Shown here: positions 510 through 55,989 of the stretch, one piece after another
How the letters are laid out: each line of letters opens with the position of its first letter
How positions within the stretch are numbered: the first letter of the stretch is position 1
Assembly: GCF_002019635.1 (NCBI RefSeq)
Contig: NZ_KV917373.1
Span: 108,268-172,267, forward strand
Reading direction: 5' to 3'
Source: Metabacillus halosaccharovorans
Lineage (GTDB): Bacteria > Bacillota > Bacilli > Bacillales > Bacillaceae
DNA length: 64,000 bases
The notes under the pieces: generated by a model
Database searches by the model: none
What the model was told of the DNA's origin: nothing
What the model saw: only the letters and a program-made list of their open reading frames with translations
Position numbers and translations under genes: made by a program

Positions 510-3500
510 ATGTTACATGCACAAGGCGGACGAATGGAAATGAATCATACGAAATCCGCAACTGAAGTTCCCTATGTGGTTGGAATCGGCGCCTCAGCTG
601 GAGGACTTGAAGCAATCGAACAATTTTTCCAAAATATGAATCCTTTTATTGAAGCAGCATTCGTTGTTGTCCAACACTTATCATCGAAATACAAAAGCTA
701 TATGCCGGAATTACTTGCGAAATCTACCAGCATGAAAATTATTACAGCTGAAGAAGGCCTTCGGCTTACAGAAAAGACTGTCTTTTTATGTCCACCAAAC
801 CATTACATAACGATCAATGAACAAGGGTTTATTCATTTGGAAAAATATGATGACAAACAACCTGTTCACTATCCCATCGATATCTTTTTATCTTCACTCG
901 CAACTTATGCTGACACAAAAGCAATTGGTGTTATTTTATCAGGAAAAGGAACAGATGGGACAAAAGGGCTTAACGATATACGGGCAAAAAGTGGACTTTG
1001 TCTAATTCAAGATGGAACAGCAAAATTTATGGACATGCCTGAAAGTGCAATGAAGTCAGGGGCAGGGGATTACATATTGGCTCCAAAAGCAATGCCGAAA
1101 CGAATTAGTGATTATATCGCAACAAAGCCAATTGATTATACAGATAATGCGTTAAAACAAGTGTTAATGATGATACATAAAAAAAGTGGAATTGATTTTT
1201 CCATGTATAAAAAGAATACGGTGTTAAGAAGAATTGAACGTCGTATGAGTCTGATTGAGGTGGAATTACCGACTCTAGAGGCTTATAAAAACTATTTATT
1301 AGAAAACCCTTTGGAAATCCGTTATTTACAAGAAGATTTACTCATTGGGGTCACTCACTTTTTCAGAGATACCGAGGCATTCAACTATTTGCAGCAATCT
1401 CTTATTCCTAAAATGATAGATGAGAATATACATAGAGGAAGAAATAAAATAAGAATATGGGTAGCAGGCTGCTCATTAGGTCAGGAAGCGTATTCTCTGG
1501 CGATTCTCTTTCATGACGAAATTGAAAAACGAGGATGTGATATGGATCTTCAGATTTTCGCCACAGATATTGACCGTGATTCAGTGAAATTTGCTAGTCA
1601 AGGCTGCTATTCAGAGCAAATTGTTTCAATGATTCCAAAACATCTGTTAGTGAAATACTTTGATAAAGATGGAAGTGATTATCAAGTAAAAAGGGAAATC
1701 AGGCATAAAATTGTCTTTGCTCCTCATAACATGACAAAGGATTCACCGTTTGTCAATTTAGATATGGTGAGCTGTCGAAATGTCATGATTTACTTTCAAA
1801 CCGAGCTTCAGCAAAAAGTATTGTCTCTTTTTCATTTTGCATTAAAAGAGAAAGGATATTTATTTTTAGGACCAAGTGAAACAATCGGCAAGCTATCAAC
1901 TTTGTTTACTGCAGTGCATCATAAATGGAAGATTTTCAGCAATGAGGTATCAGATAGCCAGCATGTCTCTCAAGCATTTCTTACTCCTAAAGAATCACTT
2001 AAAGAACAAGGGAAGGACAGAAGAAATTTGGAGCATCTTCGTGAATTGAATCGATTTCAACACCCGGATGAGTTATATGTTTCATTAATGGATGAAATAT
2101 TGCCTCCGTGTATTGTTGTTAATGAGCATAATGAGGTTTTATTAGTCTCCGGGAATGCAGGAGAGTATTTGAATCTGCCAAAAGGGAAAGTGAATTATAA
2201 TATTTTTAATATGGTTCCTACGAATTTATCAGTGGCAATTGGAACAGCGATTAAAAAGGCAAGAGAGGAACTTAAAGAAATTAAGTATAAAAACCTTCTT
2301 ATTAATCAAAATGAGAATAAACAGGTAAAGCTTATCGTAAAGCCTTTAGAGAGAGCAGGAAAAGGATATGTATCGCTGTTTTTAGAAGCGCATAAGCCGG
2401 ATTCTTCAACTGAATTTAAGGCGGATTCTATAATATTTGATCATGACTCAGCCTATAATCAAAGAATCTTTGACCTGGAGCAGGAACTTTTTTATACAAA
2501 ACAAAGTCTGCAAACAACGATAGAAGAGCTTGAAACATCGAATGAGGAGCTGCAGTCTACAAATGAAGAATTAATTGCTGCAAATGAAGAATTGCAAAGC
2601 ACGAATGAAGAAATGCAGTCTGTAAATGAAGAGTTAATAACCGTAAATACCGAGTATGAAAAGAAAATCAAAGAGTTAACTAACTTAAATAATGATATGG
2701 ACAACCTCCTCATTAATACGAATATCGCCACGATTTTCTTAAATAAAAACCTTGATATTAAGCTCTATACACCTGAAGCTATGAAAATATTTCATCTCAT
2801 AGAGCGTGATATAGGAAGGCCGATTTATCACATTTCACATCGTCTTGATTATGATCTGATTCTACAGGATATCGAGGAAGTGTTATTAACAACAAAATCG
2901 ATTATCAAGGAATTGCCATCAAAGGACGGAAAGTGGTACAGCGTTAAAATCATGCCATATCGAACAGGTGAAAACTTAATCGATGGTATTGTGATTACAT
3001 TTATTGATATTTCAAATATTAAAAAGGTTAATCGCGAGTTGCAATTGAGTATGCAAGCAATTGAGCTTGGACCTGCATATACGGCATTTACCGATTTTCA
3101 AGGTAAAATTGAATATGCAAACAGTAAGTTTGCGGAACAACTGGGCATAGATGTGCACCAAATCATTGGCCGTAAAATAAAAGATATTTATTCTAAATAC
3201 TATCAAGAAAGTGAATTTGAACAGTATTGGAAAAAAGTTCGTGCCGGTGAGACATGGACGGGCGAGCTGTCTTATAAAGGGAAAGACGGGAAGGAGAAAT
3301 GGGAACATTTATCTCTAATTCCTGTTGAAAATGTAGAAAATGATGTTGTCCAAATCTTACTTGTTGGTGAGGATATTACAAGCAGAAAAAGTTCAGAACA
3401 AATGCTGATTAAATCTGAAATGCTTTCTGGAATTGGTCAGCTGGCAGCAGGAATTGCACATGAAATTCGAAATCCGTTAACTTCTTTACGAGGATTTCTT

Positions 3501-4073
3501 CAATTAATGATCCAAACGAATACATATAGTAAGGAATATGCGGAAGTGATGATGACGGAATTTATCAGGCTTGAAGAAATCATCAATGAATTCCTTGTAC
3601 TTTCGAGAAAGAAAACAGCTGAATTTAAAGATGTCAATATAAATAAAATTATTCAAGATATATCAAAGATCTGGGAAACACAGGCGATCCTTAATAATGT
3701 GACGATTGAAACCTCCATTGACCCAATGAGTTTTACTGTTAAAGGGATTGAAAATGAACTAAAGCAGGTGTTTATCAATATTGTAAAAAATGGAATAGAG
3801 GCAATGGAAGGACGTACAGGCCAGCTCAAAATAGAAGCAAAGAAACTCGAAGATGATCGAGTACTTCTGCGATTTGAGGATCAAGGAAAAGGCATACCTA
3901 AGGAGCAGCTTGAAAAAATGGGTGAACCATTTTTTACAACAAAAGAAAAAGGAACAGGTTTAGGGTTAATGGTAAGCTTTAAAATTATTGAAAGTCATAA
4001 TGGTAAGCTCATTTTTACAAGTGAACCGGATAAAGGAACGACAGTTGAAATTACGTTACCTTTATCTCATTAG
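510..4073 (+). CDS. CheB-CheR-PAS-histidine kinase fusion protein
   Basis: A 1187-residue cytoplasmic signalling hybrid; the start is set by an SD site (AAGGGAGG) 7 bases upstream. Domains in order: a CheB-type methylesterase (GIGASAGG with Ser29, His56, and Asp149 in GTDGTKG form the catalytic triad); a CheR-type SAM methyltransferase at about 210-480 ([32 protein letters not shown]); a long coiled coil of repeated SNEEL/ANEEL units at about 655-740; two PAS domains; a HisKA H-box ([13 protein letters not shown], His near 984); and HATPase_c. The CheB receiver domain is absent, as usual in this fusion family. No chemotaxis receptor gene is nearby, so the methylation target is unknown. The kinase half resembles Spo0F-phosphorylating kinases, but no cognate regulator is adjacent. 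The stop overlaps the convergent downstream gene by 4 bases. Confidence 0.95.
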
Positions 4074-4699
4074 TCAAAGCGGTCGAGAAGAGGCAGTAGT
4101 GTAATATAAAAATCAATGGAAGAGCGAAGTTCATTAAGCTCATCAACAATAACCTCATAGTGGGCACTTTTCCCACTCTCGATAATATCAGGTCGAAGAA
4201 GGCTTAATAAATCTTGAATTTTTTCTAATTTTCCTGGAAGTTGCTTCATGTGGTCGGAAGAACTAATTAAATTATATAGATCTGAATCTGTTAAAAATGG
4301 TTGAAACAATGAAATAATTTCTTTCCTTTGATGCTGCTCCATCCTGTCCTTGTCAGTCACAATCAATTGCTCTCGAAGCAAATGAACTTGGTGGCTGACT
4401 TTTTTTAGTTTCTCTTTAAGAGGGATACAAACAACATATAAATAACCTTCACGATTCTGGGTTACATATATTTCAAAAAGCTCCAACTCATTTTCTGCTG
4501 TCATGATATTTGCTTCAAATTTTTGCTTTTCTTTCGTTGATAAAAAATAATGTACTTTGTTTTTACTATCATCATCTACTATATCCAGGAAGTTTTTTCT
4601 TTTAGAAAAAAGTGTTATAGAAATAGATGAACGATCTAGTATGTTAAGTTCGGTATCAAGAATAAAAACAGGAACGGGAATATTCTCTAGAGCAAACAT
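4070..4699 (-). CDS. PAS-like sensor protein without an output domain
   Basis: About 209 residues. The start is placed at the ATG preceded by GGAGGACAAT; the ATG 12 bases further upstream overlaps that SD site. Residues 1-45 (PVPVFILDTELNILDRS, then a segment with FLDIVDDDSKNKV) look like the first part of a PAS domain and match the N-terminus of the PAS-STAS protein at 47924-48670, which has FLDIVDRESKNKA at the same place. The second half is predicted helical (around LREQLIVTDKDRMEQHQRKE) with no recognisable catalytic or DNA-binding motif. It is convergent with the CheB-CheR-kinase gene, with a 4-base overlap of their ends. A role as a small input or adaptor protein is inference. Confidence 0.75.
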   Translation of the reverse strand: MFALENIPVPVFILDTELNILDRSSISITLFSKRKNFLDIVDDDSKNKVHYFLSTKEKQKFEANIMTAENELELFEIYVTQNREGYLYVVCIPLKEKLKKVSHQVHLLREQLIVTDKDRMEQHQRKEIISLFQPFLTDSDLYNLISSSDHMKQLPGKLEKIQDLLSLLRPDIIESGKSAHYEVIVDELNELRSSIDFYITLLPLLDRFD

Positions 4700-4916
4700 A
4701 TTGTCCTCCATAGTTTAAAAAGATTATCGTAATGAGTGAGCAGCTTCATTTGTAATGTATCGCCAAGTAAAACAGTTGAGCAAGCTTTCTGGATAGATCA
4801 TTCATAAAAGCTAGTCCCCTTCTTGTTTCATCTCCATTTATTATACTTATCTATGAAAATAACTGCATCTATTAATATGATGACGCTATCCCATTCTTCT
4901 ATTCCCTAAAAATCTA

Positions 4917-9283: not shown

Positions 9284-9468
9284 AGCGTTGACATCCAGCT
9301 CCGAAGCACAGGATGTGCAAGTGCAGTTTTTGCGACAGGACGTCGCGTTCTTAAACTGCCAGCGCCTAGCCCCTCTAGGGTCTAGCCACAAATGAATTGA
9401 AGACAAAGAACGTCTTCTATTCATTTGCGTCTTATTTGCCTGAGGCTGATCAAGGCACTTGCGCTTTT
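9284..9468. repeat. Intergenic repeat family A, copy 2
   Basis: Contains GACATCCAGCTCCGAAGCAC at the left and AAGGCACTTGCGCTTTT at the right. An internal module (GGATGTGCAAGTGCAG, GCGACAGGACGTCGCG) is shared with the 16.5-kb and 41.9-kb copies and absent from copy 1. It lies between the yhcV terminator and yhcW. Confidence 0.8.
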
Positions 9469-16483: not shown

Positions 16484-16668
16484 TTTTGGTGTCTAGCTCC
16501 AGGCGCCATCGGCGAAGCACAGGATGTGCAAGTGCAGTCAATGCGACAGGACGTCGCGATTTTGACTGCCTCTAGGACTAGTCAAATAGAAATAGAAGGC
16601 ATAGAACGCCTTCTATTCCTATTCGCCTTATGCTTGTCGCCGATATGCTTAGCGCCTTGCGCTTTCCT
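16484..16668. repeat. Intergenic repeat family A, copy 3
   Basis: Begins AGTTTTGGTGTCTAGCTCCA (start shared with the copy between the nrd genes) and ends TAGCGCCTTGCGCTTTCC. It carries the GGATGTGCAAGTGCAG/GCGACAGGACGTCGCG module and inverted arms around AGAAGGC and GCCTTCT. Its right end touches the yhdB stop. Confidence 0.8.
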
Positions 16669-41897: not shown

Positions 41898-42119
41898 CGT
41901 TAGGAAACTATAAAATTCTTTGAACTGTGGATAAGTGCCCTACATCCAGCTCCGAAGCACAGGATGTGCAAGTGCAGTTTTTGCGACAGGACGTCGCGCT
42001 TTTAAACTGCCAGCGTCTAGCCCCTCTAGGGTCTAGCCACAAAGGAATTGAAGACAAAGTACGTCTTCTATTCCTTTGCGTCTTATTTGCCCGAGGCTGA
42101 TCAAGGCGCTTGCGCTTTA
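41898..42119. repeat. Intergenic repeat family A, copy 4
   Basis: Shares GAACTGTGGATAAGTG with copy 1 and the interior of copy 2 nearly base for base (ACATCCAGCTCCGAAGCACA, then GCCAGCGTCTAGCCCCTCTA), ending AAGGCGCTTGCGCTTTAG. It fills most of the 41859-42168 gap. Confidence 0.8.
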
Positions 42120-45858: not shown

Positions 45859-45896
45859 AGAGGACAGTTCCATATATGGAACTGTCCTCTAGTTTT
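45859..45896. terminator. Bidirectional terminator before katA
   Basis: AGAGGACAGTTCCA/TGGAACTGTCCTCT, 14-bp perfect stem with a TATA loop, then AGTTTT. Confidence 0.9.
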
Positions 45897-47568
45897 AATA
45901 AGGATCTGCCTCGTGACCTTTTTTGACCGCATCTTCAGTTGCTTCATTTGCAGCTAATGTACCTTGGCCATATCGAGATTGACCTGATTCACGGCCGGGC
46001 ACTTTATCAAGCTCTACATCTTTCATTTCTTTCATTTTGCTCATTTTCATTTCGATGCCTTCCTTCACACGACGACCATAATCTTCATCCGCTTGTGTAA
46101 AGTGTTCGATCATTGCATCCTGAATTTTTTTATCACAAATGGCTAGGGCATCTGATAAGTTTTTAATTAATTCATCACGTTCCCACTCTTCAAGGCTGCG
46201 GTAGGTATGACCAGCTTGACCGTAGTTGTTAGGGCGGTCAATTGGTGCAGTCATCGCCGCTGCATTATACGTTGGACGATGTGGTGCACGGCCTTCTGTG
46301 CTTGCTTCCTTAAATCCGCCGAGCATTGATGGCTCATAATTAATATGAGGATTAGGGCCTGATTCTTCAGGGTCACGTACATCCATTTGTCCTCGCTGTT
46401 GATTTGTGTGAACAGTTGTTTTTGGAGCATTCACAGGTAATTTCAGATAATTTGCTCCAACACGATAGCGTTGCGTATCAGAGTAAGAAAAGGTACGACC
46501 TTGTAACATCTTATCATCTGAAAAGTCCATTCCATCGACAAGGACACCTGTACCGAAAGCAGCTTGCTCAATCTCCGCATGAAAATCCTTTGGATTACGA
46601 TCAAGTACCATGCGTCCGACGGGCAACCATGGGAACTTATCTTCAGGCCATAGCTTTGTATCATCAAGAGGATCAAAGTCGAGCTCGGGATGGTAATCAT
46701 CCTCCATAATTTGAACAAAAAGCTCCCATTCCGGATAATCACCACGCTCAATGGCTTCATATAAATCCTGTGTTGCATGACCAACGTTTTTAGCTTGAAT
46801 GGAATCAGCTTCTTCTTGAGTTAAATTTCGGATTCCCTGCTTTGGCTCCCAGTGATATTTGACCAGCACGGTTTTGCCATCTGCATTAACCCATTTATAT
46901 GTATTGACACCAGAACCTTGCATATGACGGTATGTAGCAGGAATACCCCATGGAGAAAACAAGAATGTAATCATATGAGTTGCTTCAGGAGTCCTGGATA
47001 CAAAATCAAACATCCGCTCAGGATTTGGAACGTTTGAAGCCGGATCAGCTTTGAACGCGTGAATCATATCAGGGAATTTCATCGCATCACGAATAAAGAA
47101 GATTTTTAAATTGTTCCCAACAAGATCCCAGTTTCCATCCTCCGTATACATTTTCACAGCAAAGCCACGTGGATCGCGTGCTGTTTCAGGTGAATCCTTT
47201 GCTCCTGCCACTGTAGAGAAACGGACCATTAATGGAGTTTTTTTACCTGCTCCGGAGAAAACTTTTGCACGTGTATACTTTTCAACCGGTTCATCTCCTG
47301 CTTTTCCATAGGTTTCAAAATACCCGAATGCTCCAGATCCGCGTGCATGTACGACACGCTCTGGTACTTCTTCCCGGTCAAAGTGGGAGATCTTTTCAAT
47401 AAAATGATAATTTTCAAGTGTTGCTGGACCACGATCACCGATTGTTCGGATATTTTGATTATCAAAGACAGGGTGGCCTTGTCGAGTTGTTAACGTTTCA
47501 CCAGATTCATTATTTTTTATTTTACCTTCATTTAATTCTCCAAATTCTTCATTATGGTCTTTTTTCAA
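45895..47568 (-). CDS. katA: Monofunctional haem catalase KatA
   Basis: 557 residues starting at TTG with AGGAGG 7 bases upstream; the frame opens 11 codons earlier without an SD. Distal His in [17 protein letters not shown], distal Asn in the [15 protein letters not shown] segment, and proximal Tyr in [17 protein letters not shown]. It decomposes hydrogen peroxide. It is about 50-70 residues longer than B. subtilis KatA, mainly a charged C-terminal tail with [16 protein letters not shown] dyad lies in its leader. Confidence 0.95.
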
Positions 47569-47587
47569 TGGTTTGCCTCCTAATAGA

Positions 47588-47657
47588 AAATAAATGAACA
47601 TTTACATTTATTTGCTAAGGAGTCTAAAATTATACAAATTGTTAAGGTTGTAGTTAA
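47588..47657 (-). promoter_or_regulatory. katA promoter and leader dyad
   Basis: Minus-strand -35 TTAACT (47652-47657) and -10 TATAAT (47629-47634) with a 17-base spacer. Downstream, AAATAAATG-N8-CATTTATTT (47588-47613) is a perfect 9-bp dyad between the transcript start and the SD; it does not match the PerR consensus. Confidence 0.5.
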
Positions 47658-47923: not shown

Positions 47924-48670
47924 TTAGACAATAAAGCTTTTAATAGCAGTGTGTAAATCTTTCAGATAATATGTATTAGGATTGATAGGAAGGCTGTTTA
48001 ACACCTTCGCATGATGAGGAGAAACGCCAATAATATACGATTTTGCCCCCATCACTTTAAGTTCTAAAACTAAGTTACGGAGAGCTCGAATTCCTTCATT
48101 TGTAATGTCACCAATCCCATGAAAATCAATAAGAATCCGCTCGATTCGCTGTGTGCAAATGGTTTCTAGAATACGATTGTGATTTTTATTAACCAGCTCA
48201 ATGTTTAACTCACCGATAAGTGGGACAAGAACCATCCCTTCAGCAAGGTCAATCATTGGAACAGATAATTCCAGGATTCTTTCAATAGACTGTTCAAGCT
48301 GTTCCTTTTTTTGTAATAATTCAAGATTGGTATCTGACAACCGTTTCCTATGTAGCTCAACAGCATCAATTAATTCTTGAATCCGTTCATCCTGTTCAAT
48401 ACACACAATATGTCCATGCTTGTTTTGCCAATTGATTTGTATTTGGTAAAGGCCATATGGAGAATTCTTCGTGTTCATAACAAGCTCTGTGGTAACAAAA
48501 GCAGCTGATGTAAGCTTTTGTCTGGCCTTATTTTTACTTTCACGATCAACTATATCTAAAAAACTGTCAGATTTATTGAATGTTTCAAGTGCAATATCAG
48601 AGGCATCAATAATGTGAAAGTCTTGATTAATCGTAAAATATGGAAGTGGAATATGCTTTATTGCTGACAT
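47924..48670 (-). CDS. PAS-STAS protein (RsbR-like)
   Basis: 248 residues, SD AAGGAGG. N-terminal PAS-like region (HIPLPYFTINQDFHIIDASD, then FLDIVDRESKNKA) that matches the protein at 4070-4699, a short coiled-coil linker (ELLQKKEQLEQSIERILEL), and a C-terminal STAS domain (MVLVPLIGELN, RILIDFHGIGDITNEGIRAL, GAKSYIIGVSPHHAKVL). Linker and STAS follow the layout of stressosome RsbR paralogues and of the blue-light protein YtvA. It lies 13 bases after the B12-binding gene, so the two are one operon. Confidence 0.9.
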   Translation of the reverse strand: MSAIKHIPLPYFTINQDFHIIDASDIALETFNKSDSFLDIVDRESKNKARQKLTSAAFVTTELVMNTKNSPYGLYQIQINWQNKHGHIVCIEQDERIQELIDAVELHRKRLSDTNLELLQKKEQLEQSIERILELSVPMIDLAEGMVLVPLIGELNIELVNKNHNRILETICTQRIERILIDFHGIGDITNEGIRALRNLVLELKVMGAKSYIIGVSPHHAKVLNSLPINPNTYYLKDLHTAIKSFIV

Positions 48671-48683
48671 GTTGAATACCTCC

Positions 48684-49328
48684 TTAAATAGAGTATTGCT
48701 TTATCCATTCTTGAAGATCAGACAATGATGTAAATAATGTTGTTCGACTAGAAACATAGGGAGAAAAATCATAGTTTCCTAAAAGACGGCCCCCGACAAT
48801 AACAGCTGGTTTATGGGGGAGTTCTTCTAATGCTTTACTATAAGTAGTTAAAAGTTCCGCATGATACCAAATTGAAAATGAGAGTCCAATAACATCTGGT
48901 TCCCATTTTTCAGCAAAACGGACAGCTTCTTCTAAAGGTAAATTTGGTCCTAGTAATCTAGTATTCCATCCATGCTCTTCGAATAACTGGGCGACCATTT
49001 TGATACCAAGATCATGCTGCTCCTTTTCAAGGCATAACAACATGACTTTTCTTGGTTGGATCTGGTGGAAACGATGGATATTTTTCATATAAAAATCAAA
49101 TCGAACGAGAATATATTCGCATGTAGATGTTGCAAGATGTTCATCTGCAACAGTAATTTCATCATTTTCCCATAATTCGCCAATATATTGCATTGCTTTT
49201 GTTATTAGGTTTTCAAGTACATCTTTTCGATTTATATCATGGCCGACTTCGTTCATCACGATGTTCCAGGCAGCATCTTGGTTCCCTTTCAGGAGTGAAT
49301 CGGCAAATTCATGAACCGTGCATGTCAT
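48684..49328 (-). CDS. Cobalamin-binding sensor protein with CarH-type motif
   Basis: 214 residues, SD GAGGTGAG. Residues ~1-85 are a helical B12-binding_2 cap with W-x9-EH (ELWENDEITVADEHLA), the motif that marks light-sensing adenosylcobalamin domains of CarH/LitR. Residues ~90-214 are the Rossmann-like B12-binding domain with the His ligand in EKEQHDLGIKMVAQLFEEHG (ExHxxG instead of DxHxxG), LLGPNLP, IGLSFSI and VIVGGRLLG. There is no DNA-binding domain, unlike CarH. First gene of the operon with the PAS-STAS gene; a light or B12 input to a stressosome-like partner is inference. Confidence 0.88.
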   Translation of the reverse strand: MTCTVHEFADSLLKGNQDAAWNIVMNEVGHDINRKDVLENLITKAMQYIGELWENDEITVADEHLATSTCEYILVRFDFYMKNIHRFHQIQPRKVMLLCLEKEQHDLGIKMVAQLFEEHGWNTRLLGPNLPLEEAVRFAEKWEPDVIGLSFSIWYHAELLTTYSKALEELPHKPAVIVGGRLLGNYDFSPYVSSRTTLFTSLSDLQEWIKQYSI

Positions 49329-53365: not shown

Positions 53366-55642
53366 TTAACTAGCGCAAGAATCACATTCTTCTATCGTAC
53401 TGGAGGTAGATCGTAAATAATAAGTTGTCTTTAATCCTTCTCTCCATGCTGATAAATGAAGGTCAAGCAGATCCTTGGCTTTAATTGTATTTTGTACGTA
53501 AAGATTGAACGAGATTGATTGATCTATATGGCGTTGTCGTGCTGCATTTTGTTTAATGCTCCAATGCTGATCAATAAAATAAGCAGATTTATAATACCAA
53601 GTTGTTGTTGAATTAAGATCCGGAACAGTTACCGGAATTTTATAATCTTTCTTTTCTTCTGAATAAACCTTCTGGAAGATTGGATCAATACTAGCTGTAC
53701 TCCCTGCAATAATAGAGGTCGAAGCATTAGGTGCAACGGCCATTAAATATCCATTTCTTACTCCGTAATTTGCCACTTTACTTTTTAGTGCGTTCCAATC
53801 AAAGCTACTTTCTTTTGTGTGATACCCACGTTTGTCAAAATAAGCACCTGTTTCCCAATCGGAGCCTTTAAACACAGAGTAGGTACCTTTTTCCTTCGCA
53901 AGTTCCATGCTTGCTGAAATTGTCAAGAAAGAGATCTTTTCGTATAATTCATCAGCAAATTGAATCGCTTCTTCATGCTCCCATTTAAGCTGTTTTAGAG
54001 CTAATAGGTGGTGCCAACCAAAGGTTCCTAATCCAATTGCTCGGTATTTTTCATTTGTTAATCTTGCTTGAAGGACAGGAATAGTATTTAAATCGATCAC
54101 ATTGTCCAACATTCTTACTTGGATAGGAACCAATTTTTCCAATACATCATCAGTTACAGCTTTCGCAAGGTTTATAGATGATAGATTACATACGACAAAA
54201 TCACCCGGTGTTTTAATTGTAATGATTTTTCCATCTTCCGTATATTGCTCTTCCACAGTTGTTGGACTTTGGTTTTGCGTAATTTCCGTGCAAAGATTAC
54301 TGCAATAGATCATTCCTTGATGATAGTTTGCGTTTTTACGGTTTACCTCATCCCGATAGAACATATATGGTGTTCCTGCTTCTAATTGACTGATCATAAT
54401 TCGCTTCATAATCTCAATAGCAGGGACCTTTTCCTTTGAAAGCTGTTCATTTTGAACACATGCCCAATAACGCTCTCTAAAACTTCCATTTCCTTTTTGC
54501 TCGTCGTAAAAATCTTCTATGCTAAAGCCCATAACAGTACGGACTTCATGTGGATCAAATAAATACCAGTCAGCTCGTGCTTCAACTTGTTCCATGAAAA
54601 GGTCTGGGATACAGACGCCTGTAAAGATATCATGTGTCCGCATTCTTTCATCACCGTTATTGAGCTTGGCATCAAGGAAGGAGTAGATATCTTTATGCCA
54701 TACATCAAGATAGACTGCGATCGCTCCTTTACGTTGTCCCAGCTGATCAACACTGACAGCTGTATTGTTCAATTGTTTCATCCATGGAATAATGCCGGAA
54801 GAAACACCTTTGAATCCGCGGATATCACTTCCACGACTACGGATTTTACCAAGATAAGCACCAACACCGCCACCGGATTTTGATAGATTGGCAATGTCTG
54901 TGTTGCTGTCAAAAATTCCTTGAAGACTGTCATCAATCGTATCTATAAAACAGCTTGAAAGCTGTCCAACAGGCTTTCCTGCATTTGAAAGAGTTGGTGT
55001 TGCTACTGTCATATAAAGATTACTCATAGCCCAGTAGGCTTGCTTAATAAGTGCAAGACGGTTCTCTTTATTTTCGCGAGCCATTAACGTCATTGCGATC
55101 ACTAAAAATCGTTCTTGTGGCAGTTCGTACACCTGTTTTGAGAAATCCTTTGTTAAATAGCGGTCAGCTAATGTGCGAAGGCCAATATATGTAAATAGGT
55201 AGTCGTTTTCAGGGTTTAAAAAGGAACCAATTTGATCAATTTCGTCCTTCGTATAATTTTCTACTAGACTTGTGCTGTAAAGCCCTTTTGATACAAGTGT
55301 TGTAAGTAGTGCGTAAAAATCACCGTATTTTTGTTCTTTATTATATCCGCGGTTTTGCGCGGCTTCTTTATATAGCTTGGCTAAATAAATATGCGCACAA
55401 AAATAAGTCCACTCAGGTTCTAGTTCATGGATATTTGATAGTCCTTCTAAAATAAGCAGATTTGTTAATTGATCAGATGTATAGGAATCTCTTTGAAGAA
55501 TCGTATTTTCAATTCTGTTCAGGTATTCATCAATATTTAGTGTTGGAAAGTGTTGATGGATATTTTTGATAAATGCAGTTAGTTTTGTAAGATCAAATGC
55601 TTCTTGTCCATTGATCATTGGAGATAAGGTAGTCTTGCTCAT
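53366..55642 (-). CDS. nrdA: Class I ribonucleotide reductase, alpha subunit
   Basis: 758 residues from the ATG with CGGAGGAATATTC upstream; the frame is open 30 codons further with no SD. Catalytic segments: QLSSCFIDTIDDSLQGIF (first redox Cys), KSGGGVGAYLGKIRSRGSD, FVVCNLSSINLAK (radical Cys region), MAVAPNASTSIIAGSTASID, and the C-terminal tail ECDSCAS with the exchange Cys pair. The N-terminal ~90 residues look like a degenerate ATP-cone. It makes deoxyribonucleotides with nrdB. Expression is probably set by NrdR boxes and a cobalamin riboswitch upstream. Confidence 0.94.
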   Translation of the reverse strand: MSKTTLSPMINGQEAFDLTKLTAFIKNIHQHFPTLNIDEYLNRIENTILQRDSYTSDQLTNLLILEGLSNIHELEPEWTYFCAHIYLAKLYKEAAQNRGYNKEQKYGDFYALLTTLVSKGLYSTSLVENYTKDEIDQIGSFLNPENDYLFTYIGLRTLADRYLTKDFSKQVYELPQERFLVIAMTLMARENKENRLALIKQAYWAMSNLYMTVATPTLSNAGKPVGQLSSCFIDTIDDSLQGIFDSNTDIANLSKSGGGVGAYLGKIRSRGSDIRGFKGVSSGIIPWMKQLNNTAVSVDQLGQRKGAIAVYLDVWHKDIYSFLDAKLNNGDERMRTHDIFTGVCIPDLFMEQVEARADWYLFDPHEVRTVMGFSIEDFYDEQKGNGSFRERYWACVQNEQLSKEKVPAIEIMKRIMISQLEAGTPYMFYRDEVNRKNANYHQGMIYCSNLCTEITQNQSPTTVEEQYTEDGKIITIKTPGDFVVCNLSSINLAKAVTDDVLEKLVPIQVRMLDNVIDLNTIPVLQARLTNEKYRAIGLGTFGWHHLLALKQLKWEHEEAIQFADELYEKISFLTISASMELAKEKGTYSVFKGSDWETGAYFDKRGYHTKESSFDWNALKSKVANYGVRNGYLMAVAPNASTSIIAGSTASIDPIFQKVYSEEKKDYKIPVTVPDLNSTTTWYYKSAYFIDQHWSIKQNAARQRHIDQSISFNLYVQNTIKAKDLLDLHLSAWREGLKTTYYLRSTSSTIEECDSCAS

Positions 55643-55686
55643 GAATATTCCTCCGTCTTGTCGTTTATTAGGCGGGGTAAGGAGAT

Positions 55687-55730
55687 AAAACGACAGAAAG
55701 AGAGCAAGTTCCAAGGAAGTTGAATAGCTC
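55687..55730 (-). terminator. Candidate terminator in the riboswitch expression platform
   Basis: On the minus strand, GAGC...CAACTTCC-TT-GGAACTTG...CTC forms a hairpin (55702-55730) followed by TCTTTCTGTCGTTTT. It lies between the cobalamin riboswitch and the nrdA SD, where a ligand-dependent terminator would be expected. The T-tract is interrupted, so function is uncertain. Confidence 0.5.
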
Positions 55731-55784
55731 AAGAGGTTTACTATCGTTTCATCTTCTCAGTCCCCGAAGAAATTGAAACTTTCA

Positions 55785-55940
55785 CAAGGTATAGGTAGGT
55801 CTCCTGACTTATGGTCTTCCTACTATGAGTCCTTCCCATACATGAGGTACAGTGGTTTTCTCAATTCGTCACATTTACAGTTGCGGGGACAGTTCTGGAT
55901 TTTCACCAGATTCCCTTTTAAGCTAAGCGCCTATTTCTTG
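55785..55940 (-). promoter_or_regulatory. Cobalamin riboswitch upstream of nrdAB
   Basis: The minus strand has the conserved elements in order: GGGAATCTGGTGAAAATCCA, ACTGTCCCCGCAACTGT, the B12-box-like CCACTG, GGGAAGG, and AGTCAGGAGACCTACC closing the P1 region. This is the class that binds adenosylcobalamin or other cobalamins and reduces expression. The downstream gene is a B12-independent reductase, so with B12 present a B12-dependent (class II) enzyme elsewhere would be expected to take over. Confidence 0.93.
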
Positions 55941-55948
55941 TAGATATA

Positions 55949-55989
55949 CAATATGTAGTTTTTGTGTGTAAATAAAAATCAATATATAG
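55949..55989 (-). promoter_or_regulatory. Paired NrdR boxes and promoter of nrdAB
   Basis: Minus-strand CTATATATTG (55980-55989) and CTACATATTG (55949-55958) match the NrdR core CwATATATwG fully and with one mismatch; they are 31 bases apart, about three helical turns, the usual spacing. A -35 TTTACA and a -10 near GTATAT overlap the proximal box. Confidence 0.75.

What the first reader, a model, noticed from the sequence alone, without database searches (positions are those of the whole stretch)
47924..49328. B12 photoreceptor-like protein coupled to a PAS-STAS stressosome-like partner
The first gene has the W-x9-EH motif and the B12 Rossmann domain of CarH/LitR light sensors but no DNA-binding domain; the second, 13 bases on, is an RsbR-like PAS-STAS protein. 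CarH works by light-driven loss of adenosylcobalamin; the only well-known light input to a Bacillus stressosome is the flavin protein YtvA. This operon could be a second, cobalamin-based light or cofactor input to the general stress response. The motif and domain layout are seen; the function is inference.
Basis: partly seen in the sequence, partly recalled or inferred. Interest (0 to 1): 0.8.

Follow-up and report, generated by a model that had tools for sequence, protein, structure and literature searches.

The report
B12 light-sensor pair wired to stressosome
Two neighbouring genes of a Bacillus relative look like one half of a four-gene light sensor, built from vitamin B12 and probably a heme-derived pigment, that may report to the cell's general stress control complex.

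Summary
Window 48684-49328 (-) encodes a 214-aa CarH-like B12 protein without a DNA-binding domain; 13 bases on, 47924-48670 (-) encodes PAS, long helix and STAS, closest to YtvA. The genome, a Metabacillus by its nearest named relatives, also holds rsbRSTUVW-sigB.

The pair is part of something larger. In 50 of 80 named loci it ends a four-gene run: IsdG-like heme monooxygenase, photoglobin-like globin, B12 protein, PAS-STAS. Here the first two genes lie together on another contig. Globin and close B12 homologue occur in the same 23 of 80 family genomes. In 199 genomes of the order, all 59 with a PAS-STAS-sized partner have RsbT; in at least 12 the B12 gene lies within 9 kb of rsbT, in two 0.8 kb from ytvA. 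The same PAS domain also precedes histidine-kinase or short tails, so it looks like the adaptor that reads the B12 protein.

Best reading: a split photocobilin (AdoCbl plus bilin) acting through PAS-STAS on the stressosome. Shown: genes, residues, operon, co-occurrence. Inferred: cofactor binding, light response, docking, sigma-B output. Separate globin and B12 genes with bilin synthesis are already described elsewhere; the stress-response output is what is new.

The parts
48684..49328 (-). 214-aa CarH/photocobilin-type B12-binding protein, stand-alone, no DNA-binding domain
   Evidence: AlphaFold2 model mean pLDDT 92.7; Foldseek best matches photocobilin 8j2x/8j2w and CtMerR 8jbs, CarH further down
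49077..49325 (-). four-helix cap of the B12 protein (residues 2-84)
   Evidence: helices in the model; Pfam B12-binding_2
49137..49172 (-). W-x9-EH upper-ligand pocket motif (W53 to H64)
   Evidence: W, E and H invariant in 81 of 81
49014..49016 (-). codon of H105, the predicted lower axial ligand of cobalt
   Evidence: invariant in 81 of 81; aligned with the SasPcob ligand His (His108 in the paper's numbering)
48690..49052 (-). Rossmann-type B12-binding domain (residues 93-213)
47924..48670 (-). 248-aa PAS-helix-STAS partner, YtvA-like architecture
48389..48649 (-). PAS-like domain (residues 8-94), the part shared by the partner classes
   Evidence: model; alignment of 20 sequences of classes A, B and C
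48266..48388 (-). linker helix (residues 95-135), the best conserved part of the partner and the proposed docking and signalling helix
   Evidence: mean top-residue frequency 0.59, against 0.48 in PAS and 0.49 in STAS; model
47933..48265 (-). STAS domain (residues 136-246); the two RsbR phospho-Thr columns carry Ile and Asn here
4070..4711 (-). second protein with the same PAS domain (class B, 213 aa, no Pfam match), with no B12 gene beside it
510..4073 (+). CheB-CheR-PAS-histidine kinase, 1187 aa, converging with the class B partner; the same kind of neighbour as in L105, L129 and L132

Best explanation
The pair is the receptor-adaptor half of a split photocobilin that feeds the RsbRST stressosome. 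Proposed working: the B12 protein binds adenosylcobalamin base-off through H105, with adenosine against W53 and E63-H64, as a dark dimer. A photoglobin-like globin, which carries the residues known to hold a bilin and is encoded with an IsdG-like heme monooxygenase, sits on it as in fused photocobilins and extends the colour range. In the window's genome these two genes lie apart from the pair. Light breaks the Co-C bond, adenosine leaves and the B12 dimer loosens. Because the histidine used by Thermus CarH for its light adduct is Glu or Gln here, the light state should be water-ligated (as in SasPcob) or Glu-assisted. The B12 module docks on the PAS domain and the linker helix of PAS-STAS and changes how its STAS domain sits among RsbR/RsbS, so that RsbT is held or released and sigma-B output shifts. 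Shown here: the gene set, invariant pocket residues, the conserved operon, co-occurrence, and linkage to rsbRST and ytvA. Inferred from known families: AdoCbl and bilin binding and photolysis. Inferred only: docking and the sign of the sigma-B effect.
For: Operon: 50 of 80 named loci have heme monooxygenase, globin, B12 and PAS-STAS in one run; 21 of 80 have B12 and PAS-STAS only; 9 of 80 have other layouts, among them one with the partner split. Co-occurrence in the family: the globin is in 23 of 80 genomes, the same 23 whose best B12 hit has E <= 1e-40; G014 and G070, which have a broken copy close to the window's B12 gene, lack it. In the order: 74 of 199 genomes have both, 6 globin only, 13 B12 only, 106 neither. 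Globin residues: D39 and W65 in 56 of 56, C36 in 55 of 56; the profile matches phycocyanin alpha (E 0.0022) and SasPcob (0.028), with C36/D39 on the Cys-x-x-Asp of phycocyanin and W65 on the Trp that I take for SasPcob Trp296. B12 pocket: 81 of 81. Adaptor: the PAS domain is shared by STAS, kinase and short-tail partners. Output: RsbT in 59 of 59 genomes with a PAS-STAS-sized partner, 4 of 8 with only a kinase-sized partner, 93 of 140 without a PAS-STAS-sized partner. Linkage: at least 12 of 59 within 9 kb of rsbT, gene order checked in three, L146, L147 and L148; two beside ytvA and an RsbR paralogue. Supply: adenosyltransferase and other B12-binding proteins in the genome.
Against: No spectrum, binding or expression data exist here. 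Nine of 59 genomes with a PAS-STAS-sized partner lack the globin, so it is not obligatory. The window protein keeps three of the four published light-signature elements: it has KEQH where the signature has GxxH; 28 of 81 have that Gly. The catalytic Asn of IsdG-type enzymes (recalled) is Ser in 54 of 55 monooxygenases (one row a gap) and the Trp is Tyr in 11 of 55, so heme turnover is uncertain. Biliverdin-binding globins of a related B12-linked cluster were photoinert on their own (PMC10151467, passages). The STAS lacks both RsbR phospho-sites; both are Ser/Thr in 1 of 73 partners. Short-tail partners also occur only with RsbT (23 of 23), so that link is not peculiar to STAS. No sigma-B-type promoter precedes the monooxygenase gene: 0 of 54. 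Globin-to-PDB matches do not reach 0.001. Presence tables are not corrected for kinship, and in some genomes only part of the first-look candidates was scored.
Confidence: 0.6

Rival explanations
1. A B12 or bilin (heme-breakdown) level sensor, not a light sensor: the B12 protein and the globin report cofactor or heme status to the stressosome by binding, and light plays no natural part.
For: A heme monooxygenase-like gene is in the operon. A cobalamin riboswitch is predicted in the same window, before an ORF that reads as a ribonucleotide reductase, so B12 level is probably a regulatory signal in this genome. The H132 position of Thermus CarH is Glu or Gln, never His.
Against: W53, E63 and H64, which pack against adenosine in known photoreceptors, are invariant in 81 of 81. 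Photocobilins also have no His after the pocket Trp in the printed alignments, and respond to light. In two genomes the pair lies beside ytvA, a LOV light receptor.
Confidence: 0.2
2. Light-sensing B12 protein, but the PAS-STAS partner does not join the RsbRST stressosome; it acts on another STAS or anti-sigma target.
For: No RsbR phospho-sites in the window's STAS. Relatives use kinase or short tails with the same PAS domain, so the module is not tied to the stressosome.
Against: RsbT in 59 of 59 genomes with a PAS-STAS-sized partner and linkage to rsbRST in at least 12 of them. Best fold match is YtvA; RsbS and a Listeria innocua stressosome chain also match. Signalling without RsbRA and RsbS phosphorylation is published for the B. 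subtilis stressosome (PMC3944199, passages).
Confidence: 0.15
3. A corrinoid carrier for methyl transfer (MtaC/MtbC kind) next to an unrelated STAS protein.
For: Weak NCBIfam matches to MtgC, MtaC and MtbC, all far below their cut-offs.
Against: The better NCBIfam match is CarH (51.3 bits, also under its cut-off of 400); PDB and fold matches are led by photocobilins and CarH-type domains; no methyltransferase among the six neighbouring ORFs tested; a PAS partner gene follows in 76 of 80 named loci.
Confidence: 0.03

Closest known systems
Photocobilins (SasPcob, AbDPcob; PMC10979010, passages and part of section 7)
   Same: B12 domain with W-EH and ExH motifs; photoglobin-type globin whose Asp270 and Trp296 equivalents are invariant here; best PDB and Foldseek matches.
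   Different: There one fused chain; here separate genes, on two contigs in the window's genome. 55 of 56 globins here keep a Cys at the phycocyanin bilin-Cys position, which photocobilins are reported to lack. A heme monooxygenase-like gene is attached.
Pre-2 clusters: bilin reductase, globin (BBAG-2) and B12-binding protein (PMC10151467, passages)
   Same: Globin and B12-binding protein as separate neighbouring genes together with bilin synthesis; the globins tested bind biliverdin.
   Different: Different bilin enzyme; mostly in delta-proteobacteria; no STAS or PAS partner mentioned in the passages seen; function stated as not known.
CarH/LitR (Thermus CarH)
   Same: Pocket Trp, Glu-His and ligand His; same fold.
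   Different: No MerR DNA-binding domain; Glu or Gln in place of the His of the bis-His light state. The genome has a separate MerR-B12 protein (L004:3383-4351).
YtvA (LOV-STAS blue-light receptor of the stressosome)
   Same: PAS-type fold, long helix, STAS; top sequence and fold match of the partner.
   Different: LOV cysteine motif in 0 of 72 named partners; light sensing would be delegated to another protein. 56.8 bits against the family cut-off of 250.
AerR with CrtJ/PpsR (PMC9144470, passages)
   Same: A stand-alone B12 light receptor that acts on a PAS protein. The AerR-like SCHIC domain of AppA binds the helix after a PAS domain in PpsR.
   Different: Output there is DNA binding; here STAS, kinase or a short tail.
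RsbRA-type stressosome co-antagonists
   Same: C-terminal STAS.
   Different: PAS-like instead of globin N-terminus; both phospho-Thr positions changed in the window protein.

Membership tests
CarH-like light-responsive B12 domain (SignatureFinder signature) | GxxW | tested here: met
   G50-E-L-W53; Gly and Trp in 81 of 81
CarH-like light-responsive B12 domain (SignatureFinder signature) | EH | tested here: met
   E63-H64, 81 of 81
CarH-like light-responsive B12 domain (SignatureFinder signature) | GxxH | tested here: not met
   His present (81 of 81) but Lys in place of Gly in the window protein; Gly in 28 of 81
CarH-like light-responsive B12 domain (SignatureFinder signature) | GxxxP | tested here: met
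   G127-P-N-L-P131; Gly and Pro in 81 of 81
CarH/LitR transcription factors | N-terminal MerR DNA-binding domain | tested here: not met
   Pfam finds only the two B12 domains; NCBIfam CarH 51.3 bits, cut-off 400
Photocobilin | B12 domain and photoglobin in one chain | tested here: not met
   separate genes; one globin-B12 single frame, broken, in L145
Photoglobin | bilin-pocket Asp and Trp (SasPcob Asp270, Trp296) | tested here: met
   D39 and W65 in 56 of 56; W65 aligned directly, D39 by a five-residue ungapped extension and by the phycocyanin alignment; paper numbering taken as chain number + 6, from the pocket Trp and ligand His
Photoglobin | binds a bilin | not testable with these tools
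   needs spectra
IsdG-type heme monooxygenase | Asn-Trp-His catalytic triad (recalled) | tested here: inconclusive
   His 55 of 55, Trp 44 of 55 (Tyr 11), Asn position Ser in 54 of 55, gap in one (Asn position from the alignment)
RsbR stressosome family | C-terminal STAS domain | tested here: met
RsbR stressosome family | phosphorylatable Thr171/Thr205 positions | tested here: not met
   Ile and Asn in the window protein; both Ser/Thr in 1 of 73
RsbR stressosome family | assembles with RsbS and RsbT | not testable with these tools
   indirect only: RsbT present in 59 of 59 genomes with a PAS-STAS-sized partner
YtvA | LOV domain with the flavin cysteine motif | tested here: not met
   NCRxLQ in 0 of 72 named partners and not in the window sequence; family score under cut-off

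The most novel reading that the evidence does not exclude
A complete, self-supplied, two-pigment light receptor for the bacterial general stress response: an operon that makes its own bilin, holds it in a separate globin, couples it to adenosylcobalamin in a B12 protein and hands the signal to exchangeable PAS adaptors, STAS into the stressosome in most species and histidine kinase in others. In Metabacillus the operon is divided, but the parts are kept together in the genome. It would be a candidate for a red or green light branch of sigma-B control.
Probability: 0.45. Interest if true: 0.87.

Novelty: new variant of a known kind. Interest (0 to 1): 0.75.

Why it matters
A 2011 paper reports that red light activates sigma-B in Listeria by an unknown mechanism, cites the same effect in B. 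subtilis through RsbP/Q, and notes that phytochrome-like proteins were not found in Listeria or Bacillus genomes (PMC3019169, passages). This operon would give other Bacillales a B12- and bilin-based receptor placed on the stressosome. It would also show an adaptor domain that lets one sensor drive STAS or kinase outputs. Pocket, partner and output can each be tested with single proteins, and separate chains are handy for optogenetic design.

Tried and rejected
Viral contigs: 15 stretches matched a pattern, none encodes a relative of the B12 protein. Sigma-B-type promoter (one exact pattern) upstream of the monooxygenase gene: 0 of 54, about 0.5 expected by shuffling. Sigma-70-type sites around the pair: 7 found against 8.8 expected, no information. 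A YtvA substitute idea (the B12 device replacing YtvA) fails: YtvA over its cut-off is in 33 of 59 genomes with a PAS-STAS-sized partner and 13 of 140 others, so the two go together. The window's own genome gave no YtvA hit at 1e-35, with 13 of 31 candidates scored. Fusion lead: G164 and G271 looked like globin fusions by open-frame length. In G164 the globin is a separate 120-aa ORF; G271 was fetched but its ORFs were not listed. Class B partners (short tail) were first taken for STAS proteins because they matched the whole partner; the four scanned have no STAS hit (L027, L035, L105, L132). The single-sequence globin search against PDB found nothing relevant; the profile gave weak matches.

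Literature searches: stressosome with cobalamin, with B12-binding, with biliverdin and with red light; STAS with B12-binding and CarH; RsbR with photoreceptor and B12; photoglobin; photocobilin; AerR with CrtJ and cobalamin; LitR with adenosyl, Bacillus and light. No title or abstract start listed names this pair or operon. Eight papers were opened, as passages, named sections or outline only, so a mention elsewhere in them is possible. The first photoglobin paper (Schneider et al. 2022, recalled) is not held and may show related gene neighbourhoods. SasPcob was linked to STAS and SpoIIE-type proteins by network prediction (PMC10979010, passages). Separate globin and B12 genes with a bilin reductase are published (PMC10151467, passages).

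Full report
WHAT IS THERE. The first (214 aa) has Pfam B12-binding_2 and B12-binding domains and no other Pfam match. Its best PDB matches are photocobilins (8j2w, E 9e-12), with CarH further down (7e-7). The AlphaFold2 model (mean pLDDT 92.7) matches photocobilin 8j2x and CtMerR 8jbs best; CarH domains follow, mixed with methionine synthase and other corrinoid proteins. The second (248 aa) has a weak but over-cut-off STAS match. Its model (pLDDT 84.9, pTM 0.50, so the relation between domains is uncertain) shows a PAS-like fold, one long helix and STAS; the first Foldseek match is full-length YtvA. Neither Pfam nor a flavin-cysteine motif supports a LOV domain.

POCKET RESIDUES. Over the window protein and the best 80 of 276 named relatives the residues G50, W53, E63, H64, E103, H105, G108, G127 and P131 are invariant, 81 of 81. 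The position of Thermus CarH His132 is Glu in 76 and Gln in 5. In the printed alignments the photocobilins SasPcob and AbPcob also have no His right after the pocket Trp, and the SasPcob light state is reported as water- or hydroxide-ligated (PMC10979010, passages); in CtMerR a Glu turns to the cobalt in the light (PMC11796333, passages). Of the published light signature GxxW, EH, GxxH, GxxxP (PMC11796333, passages and sections 8 and 12) the window protein lacks the Gly of GxxH. In two unnamed-genome paralogues the ligand His itself is Gln (L035, L048).

THE LARGER OPERON. A scan of the genome collection (84,980 species) gave 276 relatives; the best 80 loci were kept. Of these 80 loci, 50 have four genes in one run: a monooxygenase, a globin, the B12 gene and PAS-STAS. 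Twenty-one have B12 and PAS-STAS only. Three have monooxygenase, globin and B12 without a PAS partner, one has a STAS gene before those three, two have B12 and PAS without a recognised tail, two have B12 and PAS with a short tail, and in one (L056) the partner is split. The monooxygenase is of the IsdG/ABM kind (Pfam 3e-14; NCBIfam HmuQ 2.9e-13, under its cut-off; PDB IsdG 2zdo 1.9e-5). The globin has no convincing Pfam match. Its 28-row profile matches phycocyanin alpha (E 0.0022) and photocobilin SasPcob (0.028): weak, none under 0.001, but specific in place, since the invariant C36-x-x-D39 falls on the Cys-x-x-Asp motif of phycocyanin and W65 falls on the tryptophan that I take, by a numbering shift of 6, for SasPcob Trp296, which touches bilin ring D. 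The SasPcob Asp that holds the bilin matches D39 by a short ungapped extension. In 56 globins D39 and W65 are always present and C36 in 55.

THE WINDOW'S GENOME. The nearest named relative is Metabacillus niabensis (94% for the B12 protein). Monooxygenase and globin lie together, overlapping by 4 bases, on another contig (L137:3843-4148 and 4145-4513). The genome has rsbR-S-T-U-V-W-sigB-X in order, two more RsbR-like STAS proteins, a MerR-B12 regulator, an adenosyltransferase and four other B12-binding proteins, some by length consistent with mutases and methionine synthase. It gave no YtvA hit.

CO-OCCURRENCE. In 80 genomes of the family the globin is found in 23, and the same 23 have a best B12 hit of E <= 1e-40. 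G014 and G070 have a broken copy close to the window's B12 gene and no globin. In 199 genomes of the order: globin 80, B12 (E <= 1e-25) 87, both 74; PAS 85, PAS with B12 81 (Fisher 2.5e-33 and 5.7e-43, not corrected for kinship). Exceptions: 6 genomes have globin without B12, 13 have B12 without globin, 6 have B12 without PAS, 4 have PAS without B12. In some genomes only part of the first-look candidates was scored, so single absences are soft.

LINK TO THE STRESSOSOME. Partners in the order sample were classed by ORF length only: 240-310 aa as PAS-STAS, 355-400 aa as PAS-kinase. RsbT at E below 1e-40 is present in 59 of 59 genomes with the first class, 9 of 13 with the second, 4 of 8 with only the second, and 23 of 23 with short partners (59/59 vs 4/8, p 9e-5). 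So the link holds for short-tail partners too and is not proof of STAS entry. In at least 12 of the 59 the B12 gene lies 6.7 to 8.6 kb from rsbT; I picked these by reading the two tables, and the rsbT place of G220 was not listed. They belong to three genera of two families, so they are few independent events. In the three that I mapped, the whole four-gene operon precedes alr-ndoAI-ndoA-rsbR-S-T-U-V-W-sigB on the same strand (L146, L147, L148). In two genomes B12/PAS-STAS is divergent from ytvA and an RsbR paralogue, 0.77 kb away; in a third, monooxygenase-globin lies 2.7 kb from ytvA.

ONE ADAPTOR, SEVERAL OUTPUTS. The N-terminal 90 or so residues of the partner are shared by proteins with STAS, with HisKA-HATPase (L047, L050) and with a short tail (L027, L129, L132). 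The constant pair is therefore B12 protein plus PAS domain. In PAS-STAS partners the linker helix is the best conserved stretch (0.59 against 0.48 and 0.49). In the AppA-PpsR crystal structure an AerR-like domain binds the helix after a PAS domain, and AerR is modelled on CrtJ the same way (PMC9144470, passages). I propose the same docking here; it is inference.

DOUBTS. The STAS lacks both RsbR phospho-positions in the window protein. Stressosome signalling without these phosphorylations is published for B. [quoted passage not shown] The monooxygenase lacks the recalled catalytic Asn (Ser in 54 of 55, one gap). The globin is absent from 9 of 59 genomes with a PAS-STAS-sized partner, so B12 alone must suffice there. 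A sensor of B12 or bilin level, without light, remains possible.

NOVELTY. Fused photocobilins, stand-alone B12 receptors acting on PAS proteins, a LOV input to the stressosome, and clusters with separate globin and B12 genes plus a bilin reductase (PMC10151467, passages) are all known. A B12-globin-monooxygenase operon with a PAS-STAS or PAS-kinase output was not found in the searches listed under Tried and rejected; the first photoglobin paper could not be read. I file it as a new variant of a known kind. On rechecking I gave the published separate-gene clusters their due and lowered interest by 0.01 (overall and if true); the other odds stand.

Noticed in passing
window 4070-4711 (-) and 510-4073 (+): A second protein with the same PAS domain (class B, no STAS) converges with a CheB-CheR-PAS-kinase gene, as in L105, L129 and L132, but no B12 gene lies beside it; the next ORF reads as a sortase. 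In relatives the class B B12 copy has lost its ligand His (L035) or carries a stop (L034).
   Followed up: partly
window 55777-55949 (-): Cobalamin riboswitch (Rfam 115.7 bits) just upstream of the ORF at 53366-55732, which reads as a ribonucleotide reductase large subunit: B12 level probably controls that enzyme.
   Followed up: no
window 45895-47601 (-): Catalase gene (Pfam) is the next same-strand ORF downstream of the pair, 322 bases on; a possible stress-response neighbour.
   Followed up: no
L145:2812-3972: In G180 the globin and the start of the B12 domain are in one frame, broken by a stop, before a GGDEF-like ORF: a photocobilin-cyclase-like layout.
   Followed up: partly
L149:2874-5318: Kinase-type version of the operon: B12, PAS-kinase, monooxygenase, globin in one run.
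   Followed up: partly
L060, L063, L065, L068, L071, L074, L083 (about 2.4-3.5 kb upstream of the B12 gene): A 153-166 aa STAS protein without a sensor domain lies upstream of the operon; three loci are Mesobacillus, three unnamed Bacillus, one is titled Chryseobacterium.
   Followed up: no
L068 and L082 record titles: Records titled Chryseobacterium sp. and Paenibacillus sp. carry Bacillaceae-like copies of the operon; the titles may be wrong.
   Followed up: no
window 41956-42021, 9305-9370, 16516-16579 (all -): Three Bacillaceae-1 small RNA matches in one window.
   Followed up: no
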